Shown here: piece by piece, positions 5,123 to 64,000 of the stretch
Layout of the letters: each line of letters begins with the position of its first letter
Position numbering within the stretch: the stretch's first letter is position 1
Source: Isoetes taiwanensis
Taxonomy: Eukaryota > Streptophyta > Lycopodiopsida > Isoetales > Isoetaceae
DNA: 64,000 nt
Assembly: GCA_021234155.1 (NCBI GenBank)
Contig: JAJEKV010000003.1
Span: forward strand, 30,797,166-30,861,165
Direction: 5' to 3'
Made by a program: the position numbers and the translations under genes
The notes under the pieces: model-generated
What the model saw: only the letters and a program-made list of their open reading frames with translations
Database searches by the model: none
Told to the model about the DNA's origin: nothing

Positions 5123-6655
5123 TTACAATGTTATATTAACATTTATGCATGGATTCACTTCACTGCATGAATCCTCCTCTGTACTAGGGCTGGCAACGAG
5201 TGCCTCGGATGAAGGAGGAGGCAAATATTCAATAATCTGCTCATGTGCATCATCTGAGAGGCAGAACACACCCTTCTCACCATGTGCAGCCTGCAATTCA
5301 ACCTTTGCACAAACTACAAGGTGTGTATAGCAAGTTGCATCAGGCATATTGTCTAACAGCTCATACTTACCATCTCCGATGAACTTGTAATACTTACCTG
5401 ACAAGATAACCTCCTGCCTGTTGAACTTAGAGCCCCAATAGTCCTTAAATGCATGTTGCACAATGTGCTTAGGTTCAGTGCACTTGATTATCCAAAAATG
5501 CACATTCTCATCATTTCCTTCCTCTGCATTCACAACAAAGTTATCACCTACTTCAACCATTTCTGCTTTCCATTGATTGTCCCCCTCATACTGCACATGG
5601 TGGACAGGAGACTCCTACTCGAAGACCATAAGAATCAAGGTTGACAATGAATAATCTCCAAGCCGAGATGCATGTCTACATTTAGACCATAATTCTCTCC
5701 AACAAAATCTGCAAAAGCATGAGAGATGCCTATGTGCCATTTCAGTTGGCCTATCTTGGCAGTAAGTGTGTGAATCTTTTTTTGTACCTGCTAAAGTATC
5801 ACATTCATATGGCAAATCTCTGTTCACACCACCCAACTTAACAAGCCAGAAGAACCTAAAATAAATGGTTTTGGGTGTAAGAAATAATTTCAATATAAAA
5901 TTACTCAACACTATGGAATAAAACTAATACCTTTGTATGTTGCATTCCTTTGAAGTTTGTTTGCAGCTGAAATAAGAATTGAGAAAGTTGACAACATCTT
6001 CAGAATTCCTTAAGGGTGTGCTGTCCCTTTTAAGCATTTCACTCGTCAATATTCTTTTGATGACAGCTCTAGCCCCGTCATGCTCCCCTTTACCATGTGA
6101 TGTGGCAAAAAAGTTCCACTGCAACTTAATCTCCTTGAGCTTGTAGAATCTGCCTAAGAAGTAGAGAGCTCTAGAAGATTTGAACTGGGAGGCACATCCA
6201 TCAGAACAGAACACATGTTTTGACAAATTAACTCCCCTGCTCAACAAAAACTCGTGATGTTTTTGCAAACAATGCTGGACAAATAAACTGTCATGTTTCT
6301 TGTCGTCCGATATGTAGAAATGCATCTCTTTGACAATTTTTCTGTCACCAATCTTGATGTGTGGGATTTCAGAATCTTCGGCATGTCTGTAAGTGATATG
6401 AACTAGGATGGAACATTGGTCATTATGCCAATGCATGCTTTGGATTTCCTGTTGAACTTTGAAGGAGAAATTCTCGGCAAAATCTATAACAGAAACCACA
6501 GTACCTTTTGGAAATGTTTGAAGACAGTTTTTAAATTGTTCTGCTTGCCACGTAGCTGTGTAATTATGTGGAATGAACTGCTTCATGACAGATTCAGCAT
6601 GAGACATGAACTCGATGTCCGAGCCACTTCTGGGCCCGTCCAACCTCCAACGCAT
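5123..6655 (-). pseudogene. DDE-type transposase, unclassified superfamily, broken
   Basis: Two exons on the minus strand: 6655-5931 and 5855-5123, separated by a 75-nt GT-AG intron whose phase joins the frames (NIQR then FFWLVKLGG). The protein shows VIDFAENF, then FCSDGCASQFKS, then FFATSHGKGEHDGARAVIKR. These are spaced acidic residues of the type used by RNase H-fold (DDE) transposases, each in a conserved setting. I remember similar unannotated proteins from other eukaryotes but cannot name the superfamily safely. The second exon has an in-frame TAG (5615-5617), so the copy is probably dead. The true N-terminus is uncertain and more coding sequence may lie toward 6876. It is convergent with the RING gene at 1619-4036. 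Confidence 0.7.
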
Positions 6656-7288
6656 GTTGGAGGTACTTCAAGACAAGAAGATTTTTCGCCATTGCCATAT
6701 AGAGGGGTAAAAGAAATGACTTCTGTAGCAAATTCTGCTTCGATGCCTCCATCATCTATTGATGCACTTCTCCCTACAGTAGTGTCTACCCCTCGGTGGC
6801 CATCCGATAGCATTACTTGAGTTACATGTGTTCGCTTCTCTAAGTGGTTGTGCAAAGGATTATCATCCCCGGTCATATCCTCTCACGTATCAAAGGCATT
6901 ATCCACCATGGTGGATAATAATCAGAAGGTGGCAGCATCCTATCTTCAAGAACTGCACGCTAAGCAAGCCTCCATAGATGTACAACTTCCACCAAAGAGG
7001 ATCTATGAAGCGCAGGAGTGTCGAGCGGGCCTTTGAGCATTTCGTGTTTCCAGTCGTGCAGATTAGTCATGAGGCCCATCAACGTCATGTGAAGCAACGT
7101 GTTGCATGCTCGGTGGTGTGCCACTTCACTAGCCCATTTTTAGACTTGAAGCGTATGGGTCGTGGTTGTTTGGACATCTTCGTAAATTGGGTCTTCAAGC
7201 TTATCAGTCCATCAAGCTTATAGCAAAAGATCAACAATGTTTTCTTCTCATGTTCGATTCGCCTGACCCAGGCGCCCAGCTCATTGAA
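6656..7288 (+). other. Decayed coding-like sequence at the insertion site
   Basis: Several overlapping short frames on the plus strand (for example 6978-7223 and 7166 onward) look like an old gene or transposon with frame breaks. The sequence continues at 20625 beyond the inserted H3 element. I do not recognise a family. Confidence 0.4.
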
Positions 7289-7293
7289 CGTGG
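7289..7293. repeat. Target-site duplication, left copy (CGTGG)
   Basis: CGTGG directly precedes the 5' LTR and is repeated exactly after the 3' LTR at 20620-20624. Five bases is the usual duplication length for Ty3/gypsy integrases. Confidence 0.95.
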
Positions 7294-8937
7294 TGTGACG
7301 TTCCAGCACAGTATACGCTCTCAGAACGTATACCGTACTGCCTCGTCACGCGTACACGCCACCCCGACTGACGTGTACGCCAACGTGTAGCCAGGCTAGT
7401 AGCCCTAGGGGGCAACGTGCAAGGAGTGTGCATTTTGCACATTCACTTAGGTGCACATTTTCCCATGTAGCCACTTTATGCCAAGTGGGTCATACCCTTA
7501 GGTGCAATTAATGTGCACATTTTCCAATGTGCACCTTCATTAATGTGCACACATTTCCATGTGGGCACATTTGGCCACCTAGCCATTAAAGGCAAGTGGG
7601 CCCATTCCCAATTATCCCACATGCCTAAAGGGGATAATTGGAAACCCTAGCCAACCCCATGTCTATTTAGGGAGGGAAACCCTAACTCACCCAATTTTCG
7701 TTTCTAGGGTTCCAGGACTCTGTTTGGGCTGGCCCAAAGGTCAAAACCGCCTCCCAGACGCTGTCTGAGAGAATTGCTTCATTAGTTTTCCTTGATTCGA
7801 GCATCTCAGCAAGATGGTCGAGCTCAGGTCAGGAGGAGGAATTCAAGGATCAGGTATTTAGGCAATTTAATAGTCTAAACCCCATTTCAGTCATAGAATC
7901 AGTAGGTTTAGCCTCTTAAATTGCCCATAGCAGCCCTCTAGATCTCTAGATAGCAGATTCTAACTAAAGAACCTAACTCTATGATGTAGATTAGATCTAG
8001 TTCTTTAGTTCTCTGTGAAGTATATGGATGATGTATCTCTATGAACTCCTTGTATTGGGAAGGGGGGTAGAGACCTAAGGCTTTGTAGTTGATGCTCCTA
8101 GAGTAGCCTCTCTAGCACACTGTAGATTCGGCTTGTGTACAAGAACCACACCTGGTTGTAGGTGAAGGGGCCAGACTGGCTAAGAAGGAGGTTCATGTCC
8201 TGACTCCTGAACGATCCCTCTGGTGTGTAAAGCCTACCAGGGATCATTGTGACTAGGTCTAATGGCTTACCACTGAGTGTGGGTAAGGCATGGGCTCGAC
8301 ACCCGTGAAGTGGTGTTCACTTTCCAGTTGGTTCAGTCGAATACGGGCAGTGGCCCTCTAGTCACCTTGAGTCAGAATGTAGATCTTTGGAGGGAGTGAT
8401 CCCTACCTGCCCCATCAGAACTGGGGAGATGAAACCCAGGAGTAGCCCTCTTGGCTGCGCATCCGGCGGGCTACAGTCAGGTCCTGACACTTTTCAGCCT
8501 ACTCTGCAAAGTGTGCACAGGAGGGGCGGGTGGAGTGGACAACCCTATGCCATGTTCATATGCCAGCCAAATCCATCGCCATGAATTCTGTCTGCAATGA
8601 ACTCTGGAGACCCCAGCCGTCAGTCATCCCCTTGAGCCTGAGCCTTGGGTAGGATTTCCTATGTATATTGTGCTCACCCTTGTCTATGCAGATGTGATGG
8701 ACCACCCTTCGAGGTGGATATATGCTCTTATGTTATATACTGACATGTATGTTTATGCTTCCGCAGCTAGGTAGGCCCCGAGGGAGACGGGGTAGAATGA
8801 CACCTTCACTCTTCCCACTGGGACTCGTTACGGGTGCAGTGATTGTGGAGGGCCCTGTATCAGTATGGAGCTGGTATGGGGGATGAACTCCTGTTTGTAT
8901 ACGGTGAGTGCACCGTATATGAGTAGGGGACGTCACA
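7294..8937 (+). repeat. 5' LTR of the H3 element
   Basis: Begins TGTGACGTTCC and ends GGGGACGTCACA; length 1644 bp. The 3' LTR (18964-20619, 1656 bp) matches it nearly throughout. Differences include extra sequence near the 3' LTR start and a short extra stretch near 8664 in this copy. It contains a TATA-like CTATTTAGGG near 7661, the leader exon at 7814-7853, and a palindromic end region. U3, R and U5 limits cannot be set from sequence alone. Confidence 0.95.
7814..7853 (+). CDS. LTR-encoded leader exon (13 codons + 1 base)
   Basis: ATG at 7814 opens MVELRSGGGIQGS, then a single G followed by the donor GTATTT at 7854. Splicing to the acceptor TGCAG ending at 13303 would create GTT (Val) and run straight into the Gag frame ([11 protein letters not shown]). 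A branch-point-like CTAAC lies about 35 nt upstream of that acceptor. Three other diverged LTRs in the window (37262-37301, 60807-60846 and 45468-45429 on the minus strand) carry an ATG exon of exactly the same length and phase before a GT. The splice itself is inferred. Confidence 0.65.
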
Positions 8938-8938
8938 G

Positions 8939-8950
8939 TGGTATCAGAGC
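8939..8950 (+). other. Primer binding site (initiator-Met tRNA)
   Basis: TGGTATCAGAGC, one base after the 5' LTR, is the standard plant LTR-element primer binding site complementary to the 3' end of initiator methionine tRNA. Confidence 0.95.
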
Positions 8951-9145
8951 AATGTTCTTGGCGACCAAGAGCAAAGCACTGACCATGTTCCCAGTAGTAC
9001 TAACTTGATAGGATCCTTAAACCTCGAAAAGTGGGAAAATTTTTTCCCATTTTTGTAGTAGATGCTAAGCTAGTAACATGACTGAAAATATAATGAAAAC
9101 ATAAAAAGACTGAAATTGGTGAGCCAACATCCAAAAAGTAGGGTG

Positions 9146-9212
9146 GTCTCACACGTCGCGCCAGGACAGGAAATGAGATTCTCATTTTCGGGCTGGGCGC
9201 AACGTGTGAGAC
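9146..9212 (+). repeat. Foldback A1 (67 nt)
   Basis: GTCTCACACG at the left end is the exact complement of CGTGTGAGAC at the right end. Inside, GCGCC pairs with GGGCGC and GAAATGAGA with TCTCATTTTC. Nearly the whole 67 nt can pair, with about four mismatches and almost no apical loop. It is the first of four same-length copies in this element and belongs with B1 at 9347 (start-to-start 201 nt). Confidence 0.9.
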
Positions 9213-9346
9213 ATTCAGCTTAAACACACCAAAAAGTTATAAATTACAGAAAATTAACTTGATAATTCTAAATTTGAGTTAAGAATTAGTAGAATTAGCA
9301 TGTTATATGCGTAGAAAACATAAAATCTAGCAGTAGGCCCCACCAT

Positions 9347-9413
9347 GTCTCACACGTCGCGCCAGAGCAGGAAATGAGCTTCTCATTATCGGTCTGGGCG
9401 CAACGTGTGAGAC
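9347..9413 (+). repeat. Foldback B1 (67 nt)
   Basis: Same ends and length as A1 but with the B-type centre (GAGCTTCTCATTATC). It ends 77 nt before the TATA box at 9491. Confidence 0.9.
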
Positions 9414-9490
9414 CATGTTTAAATATAGGTGTTTTAGATGTTTTAGGCAACCCAAACAGGTAGTTTGAAGTTTGACCTAAAACCGACCCC

Positions 9491-9498
9491 TATAAATA
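9491..9498 (+). promoter_or_regulatory. TATA box for the H3 gene
   Basis: TATAAATA in a C-rich setting, 110 nt upstream of the H3 ATG at 9601. The second accessory gene has the same motif at the same relative place after its own A/B foldback pair, so each accessory gene appears to have its own promoter. Confidence 0.7.
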
Positions 9499-9600
9499 GA
9501 CCTAGACCCCCTCATTTTCTCGCGTACCCTGCTTAGAAGTCTGCTCTCCTTTGCCAAGGCGATTTTCTGGCGCATAGCTCGGATCGGCGAACCGTCAAAC

Positions 9601-10866
9601 ATGGCTCGGACAAAACAGACCGCTAGGAAGCCTCGCCAAGAAGAATCATCAAGCGCCCAAGGTCCTGCCCTCTTTCGGAGGATCCTTCAAGAACGCCTTT
9701 TCCGGGAAGACGAATCTTCTTCCAGCGAAGAGGCAGGATCGGAGCAGAGCGATCAGACGGAGATCATAGAAGAAGAGCGGCCGGATATCATGCATCAGAT
9801 TCTCGAAGAGGTCGCCGAGGAGGAGAAGAGGGCCAGGGAAGAGCAAGAGCAAAAAGAGCAGTCGACAGTCGAAGAACAACTCCAGACTGGGACCCATCGG
9901 CAGGAGGAGGAAGGGAGAGAAGAGCAGCGGCAGCCGACGCTTAGCCCTGCAGAAGAAGCAGACCTCGCGGCATTCATCAGCAAGTATGAAGCCAAAGAGC
10001 GCCGCCGGGAGCAGAGGACGAAGGACCGAGAAGACGACCCAACCACAGCCAGCGGGCCAAAGAAGAGGAAGGCCAAAGCTATTAAGGCGGGCAAAAGAAA
10101 AGTTGTGAAGGTTGGTAAACGAGCGACGGGCCCCGTCATCAACGAGCCATCAGGTGAACAGACCCCGCCTTCTACTGACGACGCGGACGAGGACTACGTC
10201 CCCAACACAGAGGGGGCGAGTTCGTCAAAACCCCCGCCCGTGAAGAAGGAAGTACCCCAGCAAGTGGCACCTGAGCAGGTAGCACAGGAGCAGGAGGAGC
10301 CCGGACAGGCAGTGAAGCCCCCACCTTTCCCGACGCGGGATAGAGTTAAAGCCCCGCGACCCCAACAGGAGGCGTACGTGATAGACCCGGTCAAGGTCTA
10401 TCAGAAGAGGATCAAGGAGCACAACACCTATATGGAGAAGTGGGAGGCGTACAATGCTTACTACCAGGAGCACAGGGTGAGAGCAGTCGAAGGTGGAGTA
10501 CCCTCGAAGCAGACTCTGAAGCCACCCCCACCAAAGCCCAAACCTCCCAGAGCGCCAGGGAAGAAGTGGACCAAGAGCAAGCAGAAGGAGCAGAGAGCCC
10601 TCAAAGAAATCCGGCACTTCCAGCGGAGTTACAGACTCTTGATCCCCCGGGCACCGTTTCAACGTTTGGTCCGTGAAGTCATTCAGGAGTACAACACGGA
10701 CATGCGCGTGACCGACGAGATGATGTTGTGCTTACAGGAGGCAGCAGAGGCAAAAATAGTGCAGCATTTTGAAGATTCGACAGCCTGCACGGTACACGCA
10801 AAGAGGGTCACCCTCATGAGGCAGGATATGCATCTTGCCAGACACATCAAGGGAGAACGCCCTTGA
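9601..10866 (+). CDS. Retrotransposon-encoded histone H3-like protein
   Basis: The protein has 421 residues in one exon. Residues 2-10 are ARTKQTARK, identical to the N-terminal tail of histone H3 with K4 and K9 at native positions; residue 11 is Pro where H3 has S10. A very acidic Glu-rich segment follows (about 35-140), then a Lys/Arg cluster (153-174, nuclear-localisation-like), then Pro/Gln-rich sequence (about 190-320). Residues 333-421 are an H3 histone fold: ALKEIRHFQRS, PFQRLVREV, LQEAAEA, HFEDSTAC, HAKRVTLM, LARHIKGERP. By hand about 49 of 89 positions match canonical plant H3 recalled from memory. H3-H3' interface residues equivalent to C110, H113, R116 and D123 are kept, as are R69, R72 and R83. 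Loop 1 has canonical length, unlike the lengthened loop usual in CENH3. K56 is Arg, K79 Asn and K122 Gln. It should enter the nucleus and may pair with H4 to build element-specific nucleosomes; that role is inferred. Start: TATA box 110 nt upstream and exact tail at the ATG. The frame is intact although pol is dead. Confidence 0.93.
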   Translation: MARTKQTARKPRQEESSSAQGPALFRRILQERLFREDESSSSEEAGSEQSDQTEIIEEERPDIMHQILEEVAEEEKRAREEQEQKEQSTVEEQLQTGTHRQEEEGREEQRQPTLSPAEEADLAAFISKYEAKERRREQRTKDREDDPTTASGPKKRKAKAIKAGKRKVVKVGKRATGPVINEPSGEQTPPSTDDADEDYVPNTEGASSSKPPPVKKEVPQQVAPEQVAQEQEEPGQAVKPPPFPTRDRVKAPRPQQEAYVIDPVKVYQKRIKEHNTYMEKWEAYNAYYQEHRVRAVEGGVPSKQTLKPPPPKPKPPRAPGKKWTKSKQKEQRALKEIRHFQRSYRLLIPRAPFQRLVREVIQEYNTDMRVTDEMMLCLQEAAEAKIVQHFEDSTACTVHAKRVTLMRQDMHLARHIKGERP

Positions 10867-11009
10867 GATTTTGTAAATAACTGAAATTTTTGTTAATATA
10901 AAGAATTTTGTGAGTAAATAATGTGTCTAATCTAGCTTAATTAAGTTAAGTTATAGAATTCCAGCTTTTATTTTGGTTAAATTGGAGTTTTTGAGCAAAC
11001 TGAGACGAT
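10867..11009 (+). other. 3' region of the H3 gene
   Basis: AT-rich sequence after the stop codon, with AATATAAAG-like runs suited to polyadenylation. It leads directly into the second foldback cassette. Confidence 0.4.
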
Positions 11010-11076
11010 GTCTCACACGTCGCGCCAGGACAGAAAATGAGATTCTCATTTTCGGGCTGGGCGCAACGTGTGAGAC
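11010..11076 (+). repeat. Foldback A2 (67 nt)
   Basis: Almost identical to A1, including the ATGAGATTCTCATTTTC centre, with the same 10-bp closing stem GTCTCACACG/CGTGTGAGAC. It starts the second cassette, so the A-B pair was duplicated as a unit. Confidence 0.9.
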
Positions 11077-11208
11077 CATGCCCAAAAATGCCCAAAACAG
11101 CTCCAAATCGACCAAATAAAGGGTCAATTCTGCCTAACTCGACGAGTTTAGTAGAAGTACAGCCTTAAATCACCCAAATTGATCAAGTTTAGCCTATTTA
11201 GAGCCCAT

Positions 11209-11275
11209 GTCTCACATGTCGCGCCAGGACAGAAAATGAACTTCTCATTATCGGTATGGGCGCAACGTGTGAGAC
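11209..11275 (+). repeat. Foldback B2 (67 nt)
   Basis: Matches B1 in its centre (CTTCTCATTATCGGT). It starts 199 nt after A2, close to the 201-nt A1-B1 spacing. One closing-stem base is changed (CACATG), turning a C:G pair into a T:G wobble. Confidence 0.9.
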
Positions 11276-11464
11276 CTCGTGACATTTCTTCACCATGCCA
11301 TACCTAAATGATCTCCCAATTGTTGCAATAGGTTCATTAGTCCATTCTAGCATGCTCAAACCCTAGAAGTAGTCTTCAAACTCGCAATTGCACCCTTTAA
11401 TAGATCAGAGTCATCCAATCCTAGTAAATTCTAGATCATCCAAAAATTAGGGTTTTCCCCTTTC

Positions 11465-11472
11465 TATAAATA
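11465..11472 (+). promoter_or_regulatory. TATA box for the second accessory gene
   Basis: TATAAATA followed by a C-rich stretch and the leader GTTTGCTCTCCACTGCTTAG, about 120 nt before the ATG at 11587. The leader resembles the H3 gene leader (GTCTGCTCTCC), which supports a duplicated promoter. Confidence 0.7.
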
Positions 11473-11586
11473 GGCTCCCCATTTCTCATTTAGCACCTTG
11501 CAAGTTTGCTCTCCACTGCTTAGGCAATCTTCCAGCTCCTTGAGGCACTTCTGCATCCGTCTGATACTCTCTTCTTCGCTAGATCA

Positions 11587-13123
11587 ATGGCCACTGCTGA
11601 CTTCAGGCGATGATACAGCGCCAGTGCCCATGCTGCTGAGGAGGATGTCGATGACATCTTCCGAGTCTTCGGGAAAGAAGTAGATGTGCAAGCTACTCTG
11701 AATGCAACCCCAGCATACAGACAAGTCCTAGCAGAATTCCAAGCTAGGGTAGGACCCTCCCTTGTCCAGCTCCCCCCCTTGCATAGGTTATTTTGTACCC
11801 CGCCCATCCCTTCAAGCAGCCTTGGGTGATGTCCCCAACATCGCCAAGTACCTAACTAATAAGGCGCAGAGGCTACCCGACTACATGGTCCTGACAGCTA
11901 ACAGGACCAAGTACTTCTCCTACACCGCCGCCCTTGCTATTTTCCTATCCCACCGCGCCGAAAATCCATTGGGGGCGACCTCTATCCCTCCCATGGAAGT
12001 GGACCCCATAGCAACCCGAGCAGAAGAGCAGATGCTTTTGCAGTACCAGCAGGAGCAAGAAGGAAGGGAAGAAGAAGAGGAGTCGGACGACGAGGAGTAC
12101 ACGGAGCTCGACTCAGACGAAGAACGGCGCCAAGCGGAGGAGGAGTTGGCCAACATGGAGCGGAGCCGGCAGACCCTTAGAGTCGCTCCCCCACTCGGGC
12201 TAGGCATCACAAGCCTAGACCCAATCATCATCGACAGAGAGGAGTATCTACTCCTCAGTGACATTCAGAATCTTCCCGAATGCAGGGAGAGGGAACTCCG
12301 ATTGGATGAGCTGCTCCACCAACTACGGCAGTCCGACCTGGACGACTTCATCGTCCGAGGAGCCTCGGACATTCCACTTCAAGTCAGGGAAGCCGACACT
12401 TATACAGGAGAGTCGACCTCCGACATCCAAGCCTACGGCAACATCAGGCAGATCATGGAGGCAGACCGAGCCGCAAACAGACTACCAACGGAGGAAGAGT
12501 TCCTTGCTCTACAGGAACAGATGAGGATCAGAGGCAAGACTACCAGCATCTTAATGCCGAGGCCTTCGACACCACCTCCAACAAGAGGAGCAGGAATTGA
12601 CCTCAGGAGAGTCGACTCCACAATTCAAGATTACCGGGAGCTGACGGAGATAGAGGTCGACGAATACGCGGGGCGGCACAGAGCTGGAGGCCAAACAAGC
12701 GGAGAAGCTTCGGCGACACACAACGATAGGTCGCTCAGGTACTACTTGCCGCTGCTGCTGGATGGGAGAATAGCGGTAGTACACCGCAAGTTCAGCCCCC
12801 GGGGAGAAGAAGGAGTCTTCATGCTCATTGCACTCTCAGGCTTCGGCAGGCATGCTCGAATAGCGGCAAATGTCGACTATGCTGTCCTGGTAAAGAGAGC
12901 AATGGCACTAGACCTCTTCGACCTCGCCGTGCCCCACCGACGGCAGGGAAGACTAGCAGTAGCCGCAGCACTCACATCTGACCGCAGAGTCGAAGACTTG
13001 GCAAGAGCCTTGCAGGGCGGCTCGTCAGCCAATGTCCTCAGGAACTTGGGTCAATCGGTAGGAACGGCCCAAGTTAAAAAGTTCCTCGAGGACAACCCGT
13101 CTTACCGGCGATTTCAAGACTAG
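11587..13123 (+). pseudogene. Second accessory gene: acidic protein of unknown family
   Basis: From the ATG the frame reads MATADFRR, meets TGA at 11611, and continues openly (AEEDVDDIFRVFGKEVDVQA). The reading frame then shifts, probably near the C-run at 11772 or shortly after. The main frame runs to TAG at 13123 (about 450 codons from 11762). It contains a strongly acidic stretch (EEEEESDDEEYTELDSDEE), a block PPLGLGITSL...NLPECRERE...DELLHQLRQ, and a helical C-terminus ending FLEDNPSYRRFQD. The related element at 60353-64000 carries the same protein (63017-63688) with the central block well kept, so it is a real gene of the family. Acidic stretches are common in histone chaperones, but no chaperone fold is recognised; a partnership with the H3 protein is only suggested by neighbourhood. 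This copy needs readthrough and a frame change, so it is probably inactive. Confidence 0.7.
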
Positions 13124-13303
13124 TTAGACTCTTGATCCCGGAGACTTTTTGTACTAAAATATTATATAATATAAATATGATTTCTGTTGCACTTTAAATG
13201 CCTTGTCAATATATTTTGTCCCACAACTATGTCAACAAACCGCATGTAATGCAAAAGAACAAGTTAAACTAACTATATAGCCATGAATTACTTGTGCATG
13301 CAG
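13124..13303 (+). other. Spacer with splice acceptor before gag
   Basis: AT-rich 3' flank of the second accessory gene, then CTAAC (branch-point-like) and TGCAG ending at 13303. The acceptor phase matches the LTR leader exon. Confidence 0.5.
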
Positions 13304-14784
13304 TTAGAGGCCTAGGTGCGGGAGAACAACAACGCCAAGACCTTAGGGAGGAACGGAGTCCGCCAAGGCCACGTCCAGCAAGGAACCTGTTTGAGGAATT
13401 CGGACCCATGACCCCAGAGGAAGAAATATCCCAGATGAGGACGGACCTTGAGCAGATAAAGGCTTTGCTGGCCGCACAAGCAGGAGCGGCATCTGTGGGC
13501 AACGCTCAACTGCCACAAGCATCAGCTCGGAAAACAGGAAGGGACAAGAAGAGGAGCAAGAGAGGGAGGTCCCCTAGCTCGGACTCCTCCGACTCAAGCT
13601 CAGATTCAGACTCCGACTCCGAGGAAGAAGAAAAGCAGCCCCAAGAACAAACAGATGGAAGGCAAAGGAACATTGCAGAGGGACGACAAAGGGACACAAG
13701 AACCTCTGACTACCAGAAGAAGGTAGACTCTGCATTGGGGAATGTTTGGAAGGCCAGGAAACTCGAGCAATTCTCAGGCGAGAACAGGTCAGGCATGGAG
13801 GCAGAGACTTGGCTCGATGAGATGAGTGAATATGGCAACACTTATGGTATGAAGGACAAGGATAAAGGAAGGGTGGCAACAGCCAACCTGAAAGGAGCAG
13901 CACACATATGGTGGAAGGGGTATGCAAAGGCCCATGGCTTGAGCAGGGATGCTTGCAGGTTCAAGAAGTTTGCTAAAGCCTTCAAGCGCCATTACGTCCC
14001 AAGAGAGCACAAGTCCAGCATGATGCAGCAGTTCTATAGGCTCCAACAGGGAAACAAATCAGTCCAGAAATATACAGAGGAATTCATGAGGCTGAGGCTG
14101 TATGTGCCAAAGTTAGGTGAGAAGCATGCAGTAGAAAGCTACATTGAAGGCCTGAATGAGGAGATCCGCAAGCTTGTAAGGGCAATAAATCCTAAGACAG
14201 TATCAGAAGCAGAGTCCAAGGCAATAAGCTTGCAAGGAACGGGACCTCAGAATAGCGGGCAGAGGCAGCAGTATTATCAGGACAAAGGCAAGGCAACAGG
14301 GAGTTATAGCCCTAGGGCAGCCAGCCCAGGTCCAGCTAGAGCCCCATATGGTGGCAATCAGGGGAAGCAGCAGGAGAAAAAGCAGGTGTCCTTCAAGGAC
14401 AAACAGGAGGGGTCAAACTACTCCAAAGCAGTGCGATCCTTTTTGCAGGCTATGCCCAAGGAAAAGAGACAGGAGTGCATAGAAAAGCAGCTTTGCTTCA
14501 GGTGCTTCCAGCCAGGGCATAGGACAGCGAACTGCCCCTACGTCATGAGTGCAGCGTTAGCGGAGTTGGGAGATTGGAACATCCTGTCTGACGACGACGG
14601 CGAGGAAGCCCGCGACTACATTCAGGGTGAGTGTCATATCTTTGCCGCAATAGATACAGAGCAAGCAGAGAGCCAGTATAAAGTAATTTCCACAGTAAGG
14701 AAGGCCAAGGACAAGTCCTTCATAGTCCTGATAGATTCAGGAAGTAGCCATAACTTTGCATCCCCCAGAATGGTTCAGCGTTGA
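13304..14784 (+). CDS. gag: Gag with zinc knuckle, running into protease
   Basis: The open frame begins just after the acceptor at 13303; an ATG at 13294 offers an unspliced start. The N-terminus is charged, followed by a Ser/Asp run ([19 protein letters not shown]). The retrotransposon capsid-like core follows ([54 protein letters not shown]). A CCHC zinc knuckle, [14 protein letters not shown] (C-x2-C-x4-H-x4-C), lies near 14497-14536. The frame then enters aspartic protease with the active-site motif [11 protein letters not shown] near 14725. It ends at TGA 14782-14784 inside protease, where the remaining domain is one frame back. Gag would form virus-like particles and bind element RNA. 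Since protease is split by this stop, the break looks like a mutation rather than a natural gag end. Confidence 0.9.
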
Positions 14785-17700
14785 AGTTGAAACCACTAAA
14801 GTCAAAGCCAAGACCCGTTGTCTTAGCAAGTGGAGCAGTAAGGCAGACGACAGGCAAGAGAATTAACTTTGACATCGATTTGCCAGGGATTAATATCCAG
14901 ATAGGGGCAGAAGTAATGGGTATTGGCAAGTACGACTTGATCATAGGAATGGAGTACCTTGGACCAGCAGGGGCCATTATTGATTGTGGAAAGCGGAAGG
15001 TGACCTTCCCAACACCCGACGGCAAGATCATTGAGATCACAAGTAAAGAAGTTGTTCCCATCATGCAGTGTATATCTTCTAAACGGCTATTCAAGTGCAT
15101 CAAGAGCGAACAGGTGTCATACGTCTTCAAGCTTGAGATTAGTGAGCCGGAATCGGAAGAAAGCAAAGAAGACAAGGTGCTCAGCAAGTTGCCGAGGCAA
15201 ATAGCTAAGCTGGTCACAGAGTTCCATGATCTCTTTCCAGATGAGATCAAGCAGCTTCCTCCTTATAGGGGAGTCGAGTGTGAGATAGCACTCGAACCAG
15301 GAACAAAGCCGACAAGCAAGGCTCCATACAGAATGACGACGCAGGAATTGACGGAGCTAAAGAAGCAGTTGCAGGAGCTACTCGACCTAGGCTTCATTAG
15401 GCCTAGCGTCTCGCCGTTTGGAGCACCCATTCTTTTTGTCAAGAAGAAGGATGGATCTTTGAGGATGTGCATAGACTATAGGCAGTTGAACAAGCACACC
15501 ATTAAGAACACGTATGCGCTCCCCAGATCAGATGACTTGATGGACTAACTCCAAGGTGCAAAGGTCTTCTCCAAAATCGACTTAAGATCAGGTTAGGATA
15601 AAGGAAGAAGATATCCATAAGACCGCCTTCAGAACGCGGTATGGGCATTATGAGTTCACGGTAATGCCTTTCGGCTTATCGAATGCCCCCGCGACGTTCA
15701 TGAGGCTCATGAACGACATCTTCAGGGAGTTTTTAGACACCTTTGTGATTGTATTTTTTGATGACATTTTGGTGTATAGCAGATCCCTTGAAGAGCACGT
15801 ACAACACTTAACGAGAGTGCTAGAGAAGTTGAAGAGGCACCAGTTGTACGCCAAGTTGTCGAAGTGCCACTTCGCAACGGAGAAGGTGGAATACCTAGGT
15901 CATGTGATCTCAGCAGAAGGAATCTCGACGGATCCTGCCAAGATTGAAGCCGTCATTCAGTGGCCGGCGCCGAAGAATGTGCATGAAGTCAGACGTTTTC
16001 TCGGTCTAGCAGGGTACTACAGGAAGTTCGTGAAGAACTTTGCTAAGATAGCGACTCCGCTAACAGACTTGACGAGGGCGGAGAAGGTAAAAGATTGGGC
16101 AGAGCATTGGCACAAGAAAGCCCAAGCAGGGTTTGAATTGTTGAAAGAGGCTTTAACAACCGCCCCAGTCCTAACCCTGCCAGACCCAGAGAAAGATAAG
16201 CTTGTAGTCACATATGCGAGTAAGATAGCTACAGGTGCGGTGCTTATGCAAGAAGAGCATGTGGTAGCGTATGACTCCAGGAAGATGAACGACGCCGAAA
16301 CGCGCTACCCAACGCATGATCAGGAATTGCTTGCGGTTGTCAGGGCATTAAGAATTTGGAGGCACTATCTTTCCAATTGGATACAGACCATCAGAGCCTC
16401 CAGTATGCGTATTCACGCAACCACACCTCAACCTGAGGCAGAGAAGGTGGATGGAGTTCCTTGAAGAGTACGACTTTGATATAGTCTACAAGCCAGGGAA
16501 GCTCAACGTGGTAGCGGATGCGCTTTCAAGGCATCCCCTGACAACTAGAGTGCATTGCAATGCAATTTCGACAGTCTCCAGCGAATTTGGTAAGAAGATT
16601 GAAGAGTCCTTGCCAACGGATGTGGATTTCAAGGAAGCATGGGAAAGCCTCTATAGGGAGGCTAGAACAGACAAAGAACGGGAAGCCTTCAAGCATTATA
16701 AGAAGGAAGGCAACCTGTTATATCATAAGAACAAGTTGTGCGTACCTGAATCATCAGGGATAAGGAAATTGATCCTCCATGACACGCACAACAGCCCAAT
16801 AGCTGGCCATGCGGGATTCATAAAAACATATTTCAAAGTGCGCAACAGCTATTATTGGCCAGGAATGAAGAAGCAGGTAGCTCGCTACATCAGGGAATGT
16901 CAGCTATGCCAGCAGACAAAGGCAGAGCAGCTTCGAATTCCAGGGGCATTAGAGCCATTAGCGGTGCCAAATGCTAAGTGGGAGGTGATCATCAGCATGG
17001 ATTTCATCACAGGGCTCCCAAGAACAGTAAGATGGAAAGATGTCTTGATGGTAGTGGTCGACAAGTTGTCGAAAATGGCACATTTTGTGCCCTGCAGGAC
17101 CACAGATACGGCTATGGATACAGCAAAGCTCTTCACCAAAGAGATCTTCAGGCTTCATGGCATGCCAAGGGAGATTATATCCGACAGGGATCCGAAGTTC
17201 ATGAGTGCCTTTTGGCAAGACCTCTTTGCGACGATTCAGACCAAGCTATCCATGAGCACGGCATATCATCCCCAGACGGATGGCCAAACGGAGCGGACCA
17301 ACAGGATTTTAGAGGACATGCTACGAAACTATGTCTGGAATAAGCAAGGTATGTGGGAAGAATTTATTCACTTGGTGGAGTTTGCATACAATAGCACCAA
17401 GCAAGAATCACCCCAAATGTCGCCGTTTATGATCAATTACGGCTATCAGTGCCTAACTCTAGACACTTGGCACAATCCCATGTCAAAAGTGGAAGTTTCG
17501 CAGCAAATGTTGGCCGATATGCAACAGCTCGTGGAAGAGGTTCGAGGGTATCTGCTAGCAGCAAGAAGTTGACAAAAGAGCATCGCCGACAAGCATCGAA
17601 CAGTCAGAGAGTTCCAAGTTGGAGATGATGTATGGCTCAAGATCAAGGTAAAGCAGACGAAGCTCCGCATTGGCAATTGCAAGAAGCTTGCTCCAAGGTG

Positions 17701-18094
17701 GGCTGGACCTTTCAGAATAGTCAAGAGAGTAGGTAATCAATCCTACAGGTTGGATTTGCCAGCACCCCTAAAGATTCATAAGGTCTTCCACGTGAGTCTG
17801 TTGAAGAAGCACACTCCAAATCCAGACGAAGTCTTGGACTCTCCAACGTTGTTGGAAATGACGGAGGAGCAGCTGGAAATAGTTCCAAAATTGATTCTTG
17901 ATAAAGCTTTCAAGAAAACAAGGAGGTCGGAGTTCCTCCAATACTTGGTCAAGTGGAAACACTTGCCAGTGGAAGACGCAACATGGGTACTCAAGAAAGA
18001 TTTAGTAAAGCAGTACCCACAGTTTATGGAGCAATGGGATGGCAAGGTCATCTCCGAAGAAATCGGCTCAGGCATGTCGATTTGTGTAGATTAA
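14781..18094 (+). pseudogene. pol: Pol: protease end, RT, RNase H, integrase, chromodomain (inactivated)
   Basis: Domains in order: protease C-terminus ([13 protein letters not shown]); RT with [32 protein letters not shown] and catalytic [10 protein letters not shown] near 15750; RNase H ([26 protein letters not shown]); integrase zinc finger (HDTHNSPIAGHAG, CQLCQQ); DDE core (SMDFITGLP, SDRDPKFMS, YHPQTDGQTERTNRILEDM); and a chromodomain near 17890-18030 (LQYLVKWKHLPVEDATWVL). The chromodomain keeps the central Trp but lacks the other aromatic cage positions, as in many plant chromoviruses. Lesions: TAA at 15546-15548 replacing a Gln codon; a deletion of about 11 nt near 15592 removing the usual YHQ; frame changes between about 16375 and 16450; TGA at 17570-17572. 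The copy cannot make a full Pol. Confidence 0.92.
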
Positions 18095-18910: not shown

Positions 18911-18963
18911 AAGGTGGGGAGACCCACGATGCTGCGGACAGCATCATTTCAAGGTGGGGAGAA
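18911..18963 (+). other. Doubled polypurine tract flanking a small hairpin
   Basis: AAGGTGGGGAGA at 18911 and AAGGTGGGGAGAA at 18951-18963 flank GATGCTGCGGACAGCATC, a 7-bp hairpin with a CGGA loop. The second tract abuts the 3' LTR and is the expected plus-strand primer. The same double arrangement is present before the LTR at 36871. Confidence 0.75.
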
Positions 18964-20619: not shown

Positions 20620-20624
20620 CGTGG
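20620..20624. repeat. Target-site duplication, right copy (CGTGG)
   Basis: Exact repeat of 7289-7293. Confidence 0.95.
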
Positions 20625-21683: not shown

Positions 21684-21684
21684 A

Positions 21685-21696
21685 TGGTATCAGAGC
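21685..21696 (+). other. Primer binding site of the second family member
   Basis: TGGTATCAGAGC, one base after the truncated LTR. Confidence 0.9.
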
Positions 21697-21948
21697 TCTG
21701 ATCTTGGCAGACCATGATCGAGCACTGACCGAAACCCTATAGGAACTAACTAATCTAGACATTCAGTCTTGGAGATAAAAGCCCAAGCACGAACCTCGAG
21801 TAGCGGGAAAATTGTTCTTCCCGGGGTAGAGTTAGTAATTATCCAGGATTAGGGTAATTAGTGAACATAATTAAGATAAAGTACATCGAAGAAGAGTTAT
21901 CTAAGAAAGTCTAGCAAAATTCAGAGACCTTTTTCGGCCAACACCTCC

Positions 21949-22004
21949 AAGAGTGCGCCAGAGCATAGTTAGGTCCCAACCTAACACCCTCCTCGCGCAC
22001 TCTT
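21949..22004 (+). repeat. Foldback in the second family member (56 nt)
   Basis: AAGAGTGCGC pairs exactly with GCGCACTCTT; inside, GTTAGG pairs with CCTAAC. The inner motif GCGCCAGAGCA is shared with foldback B1 of the H3 element, but the closing stem is a different sequence that still pairs. Confidence 0.85.
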
Positions 22005-22318
22005 AGAGTAGTTACCCCATATGAACCCTAGAACTTGGTTTTAGGGAACTCCTCCAGCTGATAAAGAAAGCTGGAATAAACAGGCCTAAAAGATGGCAGC
22101 CATTGCTTTTTGAAGTCGATGAGCCAGAGGCATGGAGTGGAAGCAGTTCTCGGCTCAACCTCCTGAATTTTAGTTCCCAAGCGGTCTCCCTGCGCCCTGA
22201 CCATGTGCCCATCAAAGGTGTAAAAGTGCATGAATGGTCTCTGAAATTATGTGGAAACTATGCCAGTTCTGTAACTGGAGCAAGTTTGTTTTGGAAGTGC
22301 TTTCTATGAAGTCCAGGG

Positions 22319-22550
22319 AATCAGATTCCACGACCCTCTTTATTTAGAGGGGTTCGAGAGAAAATAGTTGAAGAAGACCTAGCTCGATTCACAGATATGG
22401 AGGATTTCCATCAACAAAACCAAGAAATTAAGCAGCAGAGATGGGAGGTCGTGGCACACTTTGAAGGCTGACTCATCAGCGTGCACTAAAAGACACCGAA
22501 AGACATGAGACCCAAGTACATCAAGAGGACAGTATAAATAGAACACAATG
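22319..22550 (+). pseudogene. Histone H3-fold relict in the second family member
   Basis: One frame reads IPRPSLFRGVREKI, then an acidic/Gln-rich stretch, then WEVVAHFEG before TGA at 22469-22471. After it the frame continues with VH and KDMRPKYIKR. These align in order and spacing with IPRAPFQRLVREVI, KIVQHFED, VH and RQDMHLARHIK of the H3 protein at 9601-10866. It sits between foldback units, as the H3 gene does. No ARTKQTARK-like tail is visible upstream. Similarity is low and judged by eye, so this is a probable rather than certain relict. Confidence 0.5.
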
Positions 22551-22682
22551 CTTTTGTAACTAATGTGTTTCTGGTGCGGATGGGCGAAAATTTCAATAAT
22601 AAAGATATATAGTCATTTAAAATGGCTCATTAGGGTACAGTATTAGATCTGGAGCAAATGCATGCTTGACCAATTTATTCTC

Positions 22683-38557: not shown

Positions 38558-40229
<1,672 letters not shown>

Positions 40230-60352: not shown

Positions 60353-60600
60353 TGTGACGTTCCAGCATAATATACGATTCGAATACGTATATTATACTGC
60401 CACGTCACACGTACATGTCATAAATGACATGTACTTGGAGGCCGTAGAAGGTTGCACCTAGGAGGCAAGAGTTGCACCTAGGGGGGCAATTTCGAATGTT
60501 GTGCATGATTAATAAACATACACAATTTAAACCCATGGACCGCATTGCCAAATGGCTAAACCCCATTTGGCGAAATGTCTAACCTAACCATAAGGGTTTC

Positions 60601-60609
60601 TATATAAGG
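60601..60609 (+). promoter_or_regulatory. TATA box in the LTR
   Basis: TATATAAGG, followed by a C-rich stretch, about 200 nt upstream of the leader-exon ATG. This places the transcription start and the U3/R border shortly downstream. Confidence 0.6.
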
Positions 60610-60806
60610 GCTTCCCCTTAGACCCTAAACCTTTTCTTCTCTTTGCATTAAAGGTTTTCTTTGAGCTCCTTTCCCCATCTCGCATTTGGGGTTCTCTTGA
60701 GCCATTCCGGCCAAGATAAGAACCAAATTCGCATTGCCAGGCTCTGTAAAGCCGCCTTTGCACAACAGATCGTCGAATAGCAGCCATCTTCAGCAAGATC
60801 AGAGAC

Positions 60807-60846
60807 ATGGATGCATTCCGAGGATCTGGAGCAGGTCAAGGACCAG
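60807..60846 (+). CDS. LTR leader exon (13 codons + 1 base), third member
   Basis: ATG opens MDAFRGSGAGQGP plus G, then donor GTAATC. The peptide resembles the copy at 37262 (MDAFRG-x-GA-x-Q). Its gag acceptor lies beyond the window. Confidence 0.55.
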
Positions 60847-61956
60847 GTAATCAGTCATTCTGTTGTGCAAAGCTGCCTTTGGGCTAGGCAATAAGGTAGT
60901 TTAGCATATTCATTCAGCCATAGAGGCCTTGTAGATCCCAAGATCATAAGCCCTAACAAAGGAACCTAACTCTAGATGTTAGATAGATAGATTAGATGTT
61001 GACCTTCATTTCAGTTCTGTGATGATGTTGGTATTTCACTCTATGACCTCCATGTATTGGGAAGGGGGGTAGAGGCCTAAAGCCTGTATAGCAGATGATT
61101 CTAGGCAACCTACTAGTTCCCAATTACTTGCGGCATGTGCACAATGAGCCCGCCTGGCTGTGGGTGGAGGGACCAAGCCGATGAAAAAGGGGGACTTGTC
61201 CCATCACAGAAGAGTTCCTCTGGTGTGTAAAGCCTACCGGGAACCTTAGTGAGCTAGGCTTAATGGCTTGCCACTGCGTGTGGGCAAGGCATGAGCTCAA
61301 CACCTTTGGGGCGATGCGTCGCCTTCCATGAGGTTAAGTCGAATAAGGGCAGTGGCCCTCTAGCCACCTGTGATGGGCATGCATGCCCCTGGGGGAGAGG
61401 TGACTCTCCTCCTGCCTCATCGGGGCTGGAGAGATGCAACCCAGTAGTAGCCCTCTTGGCTAATGTACCTGGCATGCTACGGCCCGGTCCCAATACTTTT
61501 CAGCCTACTCTGCAAAGTGTGCACAGGGGCGGATGGAGTGGACTACCCTAAGCTATGTTCCTATGCCAGCCAAATCCAATTGCCATGAATTCTGTCTGCA
61601 ATGATTTCTGGAGGCCCAAGCCGTCAGTCATACCCCCTTGAGTCTGAGCCCTGGATAGGATTTCCCTTTGCTGTTATTGTTCATGATGATGTTGTTGTAT
61701 TGATGATGTCATGATGTGTTCACCCTTCGAGGTGATTGTATTGTTATATTGTATTATGTGCTCATGTTTATTCACGCTTCCGCAGATAGGTCGACCCAAA
61801 GGGAGACGGGTGAATGACATGTCCACTCTTCCCTTGCTGGCTCATTCCACTGGGAGTGGTGTCAGGTGGATGGCCCCTGCCAGTTTGGCTGACAGGGGGA
61901 ATGCTCCATCTTCTGATATGGTGTGTGCACCATAGAGGAAGCAGGGGACGTCGCAG

Positions 61957-61968
61957 TGGTATCAGAGC
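61957..61968 (+). other. Primer binding site of the third member
   Basis: TGGTATCAGAGC, one base after the LTR. Confidence 0.95.
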
Positions 61969-62176
61969 ATGATCTTGGTAGACCAAGGTCGAGCACTGAC
62001 CATTTTTCCCATAGGACTAACAGTAGACTTCAAGTCTTGGGAATAGCCACCCAAGCATGAACCTCAAAAATTGGGAAAAAATTTTCTAATTTCTAGTGCA
62101 TAAAATAGGTTAATGCTAAAGTTAGTAGTAAGTTTTAGCAGAAACCCAACCAAAATTGCACAAAAAGAGGTGACCC

Positions 62177-62240
62177 CTCACAAAGTGCGCCCAGACCAAA
62201 TCTGCCCATGCTCGGATTTGCTCCCCGCGCACTGTGTGAG
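62177..62240 (+). repeat. Foldback, third member, first (64 nt)
   Basis: CTCACA pairs with TGTGAG, AGTGCGC with GCGCACT, and inner AAATC with GATTT. The stem sequence differs from the H3 element but the architecture is the same. Confidence 0.85.
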
Positions 62241-62380
62241 TGGTGGACCCATGTTGACCTAGTTAGATGCATAATCTAATAGTGTAGTTCAGCTTATCCC
62301 TTAGATTTTAGCTAGTTTTGCATGTTAAAACACTAAGGAACTCTTTTAAATTGAAAATTGGACCCAAAAAGAGGTGACCC

Positions 62381-62444
62381 CTCACAGAGTGCACCCATAC
62401 CAAATCTGCCCATGCTCGGATTTGCTCCTCGCGCACTGTGTGAG
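62381..62444 (+). repeat. Foldback, third member, second (64 nt)
   Basis: Same length as the first and 204 nt downstream of it. CTCACAGAGTGCAC faces GCGCACTGTGTGAG. Confidence 0.85.
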
Positions 62445-63008
62445 TGGTCAAAACTGTGAACCTTCATAACTTGAGTTATACAGCTCCAAATCGCCTAAAA
62501 TTTATTGCGTTAGGACCATTAAAGAGTCTAGAATCCATTTATGATTTCAAATTAGGTTAAAAGTATTATATTCCATATCAAAATGACCAAAATTACTCAA
62601 CCCCTAAATTTTGTCTTCCGAACTAGGGTTTGTTTAGAAATAGAAGCAATAGCTTTTAACAGAAGGGAGGAGAGTGAAAAGGCAGACCCAAAAGAGGAAG
62701 CACTATGCCAAACACCTCTACCAACGAAGCGAGTAGTACAGGGCACAACTGGCCTACCAACAATCTTCATCGAATGGAAGACATACGTTAATCATCTGCA
62801 TGACTTCTCGACTATCAAGCACTCGGTTGCAACACCCACGAGCTCGTAGCAGAAAGAAGATTGCTACTTTATTGTAGAAATCTTTGTAAATACAAATTTA
62901 TGTTTTGACATGCTAATATGTGAAATCATAGTTATCTAGATTGTATTAATAACTTCTGCAACTGGAATCACCAAAATTGGAGCAAAACTCAGTGTTTTGG
63001 CCCCACCC

Positions 63009-63062
63009 CTCACAGAGTGCGCCCAGACCAATTCTGCCCAGGCTCAGAATTGCTCCCCGCGC
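63009..63062 (+). repeat. Foldback, third member, truncated
   Basis: Left arm CTCACAGAGTGCGCC and centre are present, but the closing ACTGTGTGAG is missing. The sequence jumps directly into the accessory-gene frame, marking a deletion of the promoter/leader. Confidence 0.75.
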
Positions 63063-63688
63063 CCCAGATAGGAGAACCATTTGTCCAACCCCTAGATATT
63101 GAGCCTATGGCCATGGCAGCAGGTGAAGAAGAGTCGATGCTTCTGGAGTACGAGGAGGCAGAACAGGAGGAAGATGAAAGACGTGGGTCGGACGTAGAGG
63201 ACATCATAGACATCGATCCAGCACAGGAGAGGCAGCAAGCTGAGAAGGAACTTCAAAGCTTTGAAGAGGGGCTGAGAACCACGGGGACAGCTCCACCGCT
63301 TGGGCTAGGCATCACAAGCTTAACCCCGGTAATCATCCACGGAGAGGCGTACCTGAGCCTGCACGACATCAAGAACCTTCCAGAGTGTAGGGACAGGGGC
63401 TACAAGATAGACGAGCTCCTACATCTCCTACGTCAACAACCGGACCTTGAGGACTTCATCGACTGGGAGACACAAGACTTCCCCATCAGCGTAAGGGAGG
63501 CCCGGACGTACACTGGCCAATCATCAACAGATATAAGCCTACACTGGCATCAGGCAGATGATGGCTCAACAAGAGTTACCCACAGAGAAGGAGTTCTTAG
63601 CGATCCAAGAGCGGATGGGAATCAGAGGGAAAACAACGATTGCGCTCCTACCCAGCACCTCGACAGCAACACCAGCCGAATAGGATAG
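63017..63688 (+). pseudogene. Second accessory gene, third family member (truncated)
   Basis: Matches the protein at 11587-13123: IEPMAMAAGEEESMLLEYEE, an acidic run, TAPPLGLGITSLTPVIIHGE, IKNLPECRDRG, DELLHLLRQ, VREARTYTGQSS. A frame change near 63540 follows; the neighbouring frame continues the match (IRQMMAQQELPTEKEFLAIQ, RIRGKTT-like) to about 63680. The N-terminal part was removed by the deletion that fused foldback 63009 to the gene. Many differences from the first copy are at third codon positions, suggesting past selection on the protein. Confidence 0.8.
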
Positions 63689-64000
63689 GGGCAACATCAA
63701 CAAAAGGCGCAACAACGCTAGACAACTGCAAAACACCCAAGTCCAGCCATGACGAGCTCCCAGACCCCCTGCCCCTAGTAAGAAGACAATAATGACTTCA
63801 TCGATTTCAAAAATAGGGGATCATGATCAAGGAAAAAAAGAGGAGACACACAATAGGGAAGGTACATCTCCGACTTGAAGGCATATATCAACACCAAGGG
63901 CAAGAACAAGGAGGAGAATAGTCGGTACGAATAAGAGTCCCAGATCCAGAAACGCCTGCAAACCTAAGGGAAGGGCGAGCCCGGTGCTTTAGCCAACTAG

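What the first reader, a model, noticed from the sequence alone, without database searches (positions are those of the whole stretch)
9601..10866. An LTR retrotransposon carries its own histone H3 gene
A 421-codon uninterrupted frame inside a complete Ty3/gypsy element encodes the exact H3 N-terminus (ARTKQTARK) and a full-length H3 histone fold ending GER-P. About half the fold positions match canonical H3 by hand alignment, including the H3-H3' interface residues. Bounded by LTRs, primer binding site and gag, it is part of the element, not a neighbour. Some large DNA viruses encode histones; I know of no LTR retrotransposon described with one. It could load element-specific nucleosomes on the DNA copy, block silencing marks, or steer integration.
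Basis: partly seen in the sequence, partly recalled or inferred. Interest (0 to 1): 0.97.

Follow-up and report, generated by a model that had tools for sequence, protein, structure and literature searches.

The report
Plant retrotransposon carrying a histone H3
A plant "jumping gene" of the retrovirus-like kind carries, between its ends, an uninterrupted gene for a long-tailed version of the DNA-packaging protein histone H3, which suggests that a genomic parasite may tamper with the chromatin its host uses to silence it.

Summary
Frame 9601-10866 encodes 421 aa with the exact H3 N-terminus (MARTKQTARK), a ~310-aa replaced tail and an H3 fold (Pfam PF00125, 2e-27; PDB H3.3, 2e-27). It lies inside a complete Ty3/gypsy chromovirus (7294-20619) with a 5-bp target duplication, LTRs, PBS, PPT, gag, pol and chromodomain. 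The gene has its own cassette (two 67-bp hairpin repeats, TATA box, leader); a second accessory gene, ORF2, has a matching one. A decayed neighbouring element shows a hairpin and a possible H3-fold remnant in the same place (0 of 2000 shuffles, Gumbel p 4e-4, first noticed by eye); another element shows none. A similarly built protein family (96 of 120 listed hits, 840 sequences) exists elsewhere, context unknown. The host-genome search did not complete, so copy number, selection and expression are untested. H3 captured by hAT DNA transposons is known in fungi; my searches found no LTR retrotransposon with one. Best reading: a retained accessory H3 that pairs with host H4 and alters chromatin or its silencing marks; the mechanism is inferred. 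ORF2 and pol are broken in this copy.

The parts
7289..7293 (+). target-site duplication CGTGG, left copy (right copy 20620-20624)
   Evidence: identical 5-mers abutting the LTR ends
7294..8937 (+). 5' LTR, TGTGACGT...CGTCACA
   Evidence: direct repeat of 18964-20619
8939..8950 (+). primer binding site TGGTATCAGAGC (tRNA-Met type, recalled)
9146..9212 (+). 67-bp hairpin repeat 1 of the H3 cassette
   Evidence: DNA fold z -7.4
9347..9413 (+). 67-bp hairpin repeat 2 of the H3 cassette
   Evidence: DNA fold z -6.8
9491..9499 (+). TATAAATAG, putative internal promoter of the H3 gene
   Evidence: TATA plus leader aligns with that of ORF2, score 49, largest of 200 mononucleotide shuffles 37
9601..10866 (+). 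histone H3-like gene, 421 aa: MARTKQTARK, long replaced tail, H3 fold
11010..11076 (+). 67-bp hairpin repeat 1 of the ORF2 cassette
   Evidence: z -9.0
11209..11275 (+). 67-bp hairpin repeat 2 of the ORF2 cassette
   Evidence: z -5.9
11465..11473 (+). TATAAATAG, putative internal promoter of ORF2
11762..13123 (+). ORF2, open part (453 aa, no Pfam match); its relative P0121 shows that the gene begins further upstream and is broken there
13294..14784 (+). gag (PF03732, PF19259)
14754..18094 (+). pol: protease region, RT, RNase H, integrase, chromodomain; in several frames (broken)
   Evidence: P0146, 1602 aa, aligns in frames 1, 3, 1, 2
18951..18963 (+). polypurine tract AAGGTGGGGAGAA
18964..20619 (+). 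3' LTR
21685..21696 (+). PBS of a third, decayed related element (LTR remnant 21205-21683)
21940..22012 (+). hairpin of the third element, other sequence, same position after the PBS
   Evidence: DNA fold z -7.3
22325..22542 (+). possible decayed H3-fold remnant of the third element
   Evidence: frameshift-aware alignment score 52 to H3 residues 348-414; 0 of 2000 shuffles reach it; noticed by eye first; plain DNA alignment and tblastn not significant
60353..64000 (+). second related element, cut off by the window end: LTR, PBS 61957-61968, hairpins 62173-62245 and 62377-62449, ORF2 remnant 63068-63601; no H3 detected

Best explanation
A lineage of plant chromoviruses captured a host histone H3 gene and keeps it as an accessory gene with its own internal promoter. 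The protein keeps the two parts of H3 that the host reads and assembles (residues 1-10 with K4 and K9; the fold with its H3-H3' interface) and replaces the rest of the tail with ~310 residues of acidic and basic stretches. Most likely it goes to the nucleus, pairs with host H4 and enters chromatin of the element or host, giving nucleosomes that lack S10, K14, K27 and K36 and so are poor targets for part of the silencing machinery. Shown: the gene, its place in the element, the conserved fold and N-terminus, the hairpin/TATA cassette as sequence. Inferred: promoter activity, expression, H4 pairing, chromatin entry, anti-silencing.
For: H3 by profile and sequence; inside an insertion with TSD, LTRs, PBS and PPT. 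Hairpin-hairpin-TATA-leader cassette like that of ORF2. Fold conserved while the tail is replaced; 29 of 30 listed core positions hydrophobic, H3-H3' residues 7 of 7 (lists recalled). 0 of 2000 simulated neutral copies stay stop-free at 0.2 substitutions per site, 13 of 2000 at 0.1 (stops only, no indels), so a frame with 43% changed fold residues was probably kept by selection for much of its history. Possible H3 remnant in the same cassette of a third element. A parallel family elsewhere keeps residues 1-10 in 92 of 96 clusters. Basic run at residues 151-180, net charge +12.
Against: No expression, localisation or copy-number data; the genome search was unanswered in 13 tries. Selection is inferred from one intact copy; part of the divergence may predate capture. 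Residues that contact DNA are changed (R49K, R63P, K64R, K122Q) and the R40-T45 stretch is lost, so a nucleosome could be weak. The second element has no detectable H3, and the remnant in the third fails plain DNA alignment and tblastn. The AlphaFold2 model is poor (mean pLDDT 57.5); Foldseek's 15 matches at E<=0.001 are all from nucleosome entries at 45-55% identity, but with target TM-scores of only 0.28-0.34.
Confidence: 0.5

Rival explanations
1. Passenger: the H3 gene was transduced by chance and is carried without benefit, as hAT transposons amplified H3 in fungi.
For: The H3 copies amplified by a hAT transposon in Pseudocercospora fijiensis were all inactivated (abstract of PMC6710886). 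Only one intact copy is seen here, and its present intactness fits chance (0.57 of simulated copies stay stop-free at 0.01 substitutions per site, 0.33 at 0.02).
Against: Long open frame despite deep divergence; own cassette matching that of ORF2; possible remnant in a diverged relative.
Confidence: 0.2
2. Histone-tail mimic: the protein works soluble, its ARTKQTARK end occupying readers, writers or erasers of H3K4/K9; the fold is only a scaffold or nuclear-import handle.
For: The first ten residues are the most conserved part of the parallel family (mean column identity 0.996 against 0.93 in the fold; the rows were found with a query that has these residues) and exact here.
Against: The fold keeps interface and core residues, unneeded for a decoy.
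Confidence: 0.2
3. Element DNA packaging or integration steering: the H3-H4 unit coats the cDNA or links the pre-integration complex to chromatin.
For: The element also encodes a chromodomain, a domain whose cellular members read H3 tails (passages of PMC3350952).
Against: By hand alignment with a recalled HP1 sequence the chromodomain lacks the first and third cage aromatics, like group II plant domains whose ligand is unknown (passages of PMC3350952 and PMC6317226). H3 is a separate gene, not fused to gag or pol.
Confidence: 0.1
4. Origin from a centromeric H3 (CENH3), giving a centromere-related role.
For: Shares ALKEIRHFQ, LLIP.A and VTLMR.D with recalled Arabidopsis CENH3; set beside plant CENH3 with weak support 78/67.
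Against: Loop 1 has H3 length and PFQRLVRE is canonical; higher score to H3.3 (257) than to the two plant CENH3 (196, 199); grouping with the parallel family is not rejected either (p-AU 0.71).
Confidence: 0.08
5. The H3 gene is a neighbour or nested insertion unrelated to the element.
For: Direct repeats of about 270 bp flank it (9146-9414 and 11010-11276), as a nested unit might have.
Against: The repeats are the hairpin pairs before both accessory genes; relatives have hairpins in the same place after the PBS.
Confidence: 0.03

Closest known systems
hAT DNA transposons carrying histone H3-like genes in Pyrenophora tritici-repentis, Pseudocercospora fijiensis and relatives (PMC3538342, passages; PMC6710886, abstract and passages)
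   Same: A transposon carries an H3-like gene within its ends; the P. tritici-repentis proteins have insertions in the N-terminal tail and match neither H3 nor CenH3 completely.
   Different: DNA transposon in fungi; here an LTR retrotransposon of a green plant, with a ~310-aa replaced tail and an internal hairpin/TATA cassette.
Phalaenopsis Ty3/Gypsy elements with an AlkB-type m6A demethylase ORF (PMC9289625: abstract, passages, section 12)
   Same: Plant Ty3/gypsy element with a captured gene as a separate ORF, proposed to act against host surveillance.
   Different: RNA demethylase in a 25-kb Tat-family element; the authors' screen of 121 angiosperm genomes reports 15 domains over its filter, and none named in the section read is a histone.
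Viral histones: histones of DNA viruses and bracovirus H4 (PMC9145170: start of abstract, two passages; extended tail of bracovirus H4 recalled)
   Same: A selfish genome encodes a core histone, in bracovirus H4 also with an extended tail.
   Different: DNA viruses, not a retroelement; not a long-tailed H3.
Plant chromoviruses (Ty3/gypsy with chromodomain)
   Same: gag, protease, RT, RNase H, integrase, chromodomain, 5-bp TSD, tRNA-Met-type PBS.
   Different: Two extra genes before gag, each behind a hairpin/TATA cassette.
Unnamed database family P0012-P0120 (96 of 120 listed hits)
   Same: MARTKQTARK start, 360-424 aa in most, long replaced tail, C-terminal H3 fold, hundreds of sequences.
   Different: No detectable tail similarity to the window protein; fold closer to canonical H3; genomic context and species unknown.

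Membership tests
Histone H3 | Core histone fold scoring above the family cut-off | tested here: met
   PF00125 96.2 bits against 26.4; PDB H3.3 E 1.8e-27
Histone H3 | H3 N-terminus ARTKQTARK | tested here: met
   exact; but P in place of S10
Histone H3 | Canonical tail beyond K9 (K14, K18, K23, K27, K36) and length of about 136 aa | tested here: not met
   421 aa, tail replaced
Histone H3 | Forms nucleosomes with H4, H2A and H2B | not testable with these tools
   -
Centromeric H3 (CENH3) | Longer loop 1 and no Q at position 68 | tested here: not met
   loop 1 of H3 length, PFQRLVRE kept (CENH3 sequences and criterion recalled)
Ty3/gypsy chromovirus | LTRs with TG..CA ends, TSD, PBS, PPT | tested here: met
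Ty3/gypsy chromovirus | gag, RT, RNase H, integrase, C-terminal chromodomain in this order | tested here: met
   P0146 co-linear over 13381-18058, 61-84% identity
Ty3/gypsy chromovirus | Intact polyprotein in this copy | tested here: not met
   aligns in frames 1, 3, 1, 2
hAT-borne H3 element | Terminal inverted repeats and hAT transposase | tested here: not met
   no inverted repeats of 40 nt or more found over 5000-22000 (shorter ones not sought); no transposase domain in the nine frames scanned

The most novel reading that the evidence does not exclude
Carrying a long-tailed H3 is a recurrent strategy of plant (and perhaps other) LTR retrotransposons: the element's H3 enters nucleosomes on element or host DNA and blocks the marks that silence it, and the database family of at least 840 sequences is a second, high-copy instance of it.
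Probability: 0.25. Interest if true: 0.93.

Novelty: new variant of a known kind. Interest (0 to 1): 0.82.

Why it matters
Hosts silence retrotransposons largely through marks on histone H3. A retrotransposon with its own H3, exact where readers and writers bind and replaced elsewhere, makes the question whether mobile elements fight silencing with their own chromatin proteins directly testable. It would also add a retroelement to the short list of selfish genomes (DNA viruses, bracoviruses, fungal hAT transposons) known to carry core histones, and give H3 variants shaped by a parasite's interest.

Tried and rejected
Rejected: chance open frame (0 of 2000 shuffles stop-free). Neighbouring host gene (TSD, cassettes). 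True CENH3 (loop 1). Common tail with the database family: profile score 15.6 lies inside the shuffled range, up to 20.6 in 40 shuffles. ORF2 related to H3: no.

Led nowhere: related loci in viral contigs for P0098, the H3 protein, ORF2 and alignment A4 (none confirmed); genome contigs with A4 gave 8 loci out of 33 pattern matches, matching only query residues 294-392 (the H3 part), probably eukaryotic contamination of bacterial bins. Contig lengths among the 120 listed RT hits and the 120 listed H3 hits, compared by eye, did not coincide, so no linkage could be shown. ORF2 structure prediction failed (mean pLDDT 34.5). The tree of 27 folds does not place the window protein.

Against the remnant in the third element: I saw it by eye and chose the tested stretch afterwards; tblastn gave E 0.3 at best there; a permissive DNA alignment gave 196 with shuffles up to 205 (60 shuffles); the tail of the protein gave 6 of 300 shuffles and 10 of 300 window stretches at or above the score; canonical H3, P0012 and CENH3 queries found nothing; ORF2 was not significant downstream (40 of 60 and 15 of 60 shuffles reach the score); two further repeat-like stretches there (22679-22732, 22876-22940) do not fold better than shuffles (z -0.1 and 0.2). 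In the second element H3 is not significant (57 of 300), and the partial repeat at 62998-63068 folds only weakly (z -1.4). The 3' ends and the spacers between hairpins of the H3 and ORF2 cassettes are not significantly alike.

Full report
Observation. The frame at 9601-10866 is open for 421 codons. It begins MARTKQTARK and ends in an H3 fold: Pfam PF00125 at residues 307-417, E 2.1e-27; PDB histone H3.3, E 1.8e-27. In the fold 50 of 88 residues equal Arabidopsis H3.3 (recalled), without gaps. Position 10 is P instead of S, and the tail from there to the fold is replaced by about 310 residues: acidic at 31-120, strongly basic at 151-180, acidic at 181-210. Of seven listed H3-H3' interface residues seven are kept, of eleven listed DNA-contact residues seven (lists recalled).

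The element. LTRs at 7294-8937 and 18964-20619 begin TGTGACGT and end CACA, with CGTGG on both outer sides, a PBS TGGTATCAGAGC one base after the 5' LTR and a purine tract directly before the 3' LTR. Inside follow H3, ORF2, gag (PF03732), RT, RNase H, integrase and a chromodomain. A database protein of 1602 aa (P0146) is co-linear over 13381-18058 at 61-84% identity, in frames 1, 3, 1, 2 of the window, so pol is broken here. The LTRs differ by 126 substitutions in 1628 aligned columns plus 12 gap runs (K2P 0.082), but the differences sit in patches: of twelve blocks shared by the two LTRs, nine match at 95-100% and three at 86-92%. Assembly error may inflate both this figure and the lesions; I did not test that.

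The cassettes. Two 67-bp nested palindromes precede the H3 TATA box, and two nearly identical ones precede the ORF2 TATA box; all four fold as hairpins with z from -5.9 to -9.0. TATA box and leader of the two genes align with score 49, largest of 200 mononucleotide shuffles 37; the 3' ends and the spacers between hairpins do not align significantly. So H3 and ORF2 look like two similarly built internal transcription units; no transcript data were available. ORF2 has one relative among 8000 scored candidates (P0121, 45% identity over 99%) and no Pfam match; against that relative ORF2 has a frameshift and, read by eye, a stop in its first part here.

Is it only in this copy? The genome search was asked 13 times and never answered. 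The window holds two related 5' pieces. In the element starting at 60353 two hairpins follow the PBS (z -5.0 and -3.7), and the H3 place holds 555 bp without detectable H3 (fold score reached by 57 of 300 shuffles), followed by ORF2 without its first part. In the decayed element with PBS 21685 a hairpin of other sequence follows the PBS (z -7.3). Reading on I saw by eye a stretch like the end of H3 and tested it: allowing frameshifts it aligns to H3 residues 348-414 with score 52 and 30 identities; 0 of 300 and 0 of 2000 dinucleotide shuffles, 0 of 300 other window stretches and 0 of 100 shuffled queries reach that, Gumbel p 3.6e-4. Against it: tblastn and a permissive DNA alignment are not significant, canonical H3, P0012 and CENH3 queries find nothing there, ORF2 is not detectable downstream and further repeat-like stretches do not fold. 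I take it as moderate evidence that H3 was present in a diverged relative.

Elsewhere. A protein search scored 5310 candidates, found 410 with E up to 0.001 and listed 120. Of these 120, 96 form one long-tailed family standing for 840 sequences; residues 1-10 are MARTKQTARK in 92 of 96. The tail shows no similarity to the window protein. The window fold scores 280 with the best of these (P0012), 257 with H3.3 and 196-199 with plant CENH3. A tree of 27 folds first drew that family apart from the window row, but a tree with them together scores better and is not rejected (p-AU 0.71); a place beside plant CENH3 has support 78/67. Origin is thus open. The high count suggests a mobile gene, but no context could be fetched.

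How it works. Shown: gene, place, cassette sequence, conserved fold and N-terminus. Inferred: that selection kept the frame (0 of 2000 simulated copies stop-free at 0.2 substitutions per site, 13 of 2000 at 0.1; the present intactness alone could be chance), that it is expressed, enters the nucleus, pairs with H4 and changes chromatin. Without K14, K27 and K36 such nucleosomes could not carry several marks, and P10 may hinder K9 marking; K4 remains. A soluble mimic of the H3 end, or a passenger, remain live rivals.

Known relatives. hAT DNA transposons with H3-like genes are described in fungi: Pyrenophora with tail insertions (PMC3538342, passages) and Pseudocercospora, where the amplified copies were inactivated (PMC6710886, abstract and passages). 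A plant Ty3/gypsy lineage captured an m6A demethylase (PMC9289625: abstract, passages, section 12). On extra ORFs in plant LTR elements, 'histone' does not occur in the main text of PMC7264820 or of the rice/sorghum capture survey PMC3726574, which does report chromatin-organisation terms over-represented among captured sorghum genes; passages of PMC12786077 name no histone gene in an element. Literature searches on histones or extra ORFs in transposons (listings) showed no LTR retrotransposon with a histone gene; the library holds open-licence PMC papers only.

Host. An exon-like frame at 38924-39325 encodes an isocitrate/isopropylmalate-type dehydrogenase (PF00180), close to plant NAD-isocitrate dehydrogenase by memory; the PBS and the chromovirus pol also point to a green plant. 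The species is not known.

Verdict. A real, complete retrotransposon carries a real H3-like gene; the kind (transposon-borne H3) has a precedent, the carrier and design do not, as far as I could search.

Noticed in passing
9146-9212, 9347-9413, 11010-11076, 11209-11275, 62173-62245, 62377-62449, 21940-22012: Hairpin repeats after the PBS occur in three related elements with different arm sequences that still pair (z -3.7 to -9.0), so the palindrome rather than the sequence seems conserved; three further repeat-like stretches do not fold well. Function unknown.
   Followed up: partly
11588-13123: ORF2, an accessory gene before gag with no known domain; one 45%-identical relative (P0121) found in the database; broken in this copy.
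   Followed up: partly
P0012-P0120: Large unnamed family (96 clusters, 840 sequences) of H3 proteins, most of 360-424 aa, with a conserved tail region around residues 35-150 and a C-terminal H3 fold; context unknown.
   Followed up: partly
7294-8937 versus 18964-20619: LTR differences are clustered in patches between nearly identical blocks, as if parts of the assembly were poorly polished; lesions in pol and ORF2 may partly be errors.
   Followed up: no
38924-39325 (+): Exon-like frame of an isocitrate dehydrogenase (PF00180), probably a host gene of plant type.
   Followed up: no
42241-42759 (+): DDE_1 transposase piece (PF03184).
   Followed up: no
51171-52400 (-): Reverse transcriptase piece (PF00078), possibly LINE-type.
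   Followed up: no
5927-6667 (-): Open frame of 247 codons with no Pfam match, containing a transposase-like SDGCASQFKS stretch (impression only).
   Followed up: no
35779-36955 (+): 3' end of another related element (84% to 18060-18697) with the same purine tract and LTR start.
   Followed up: no
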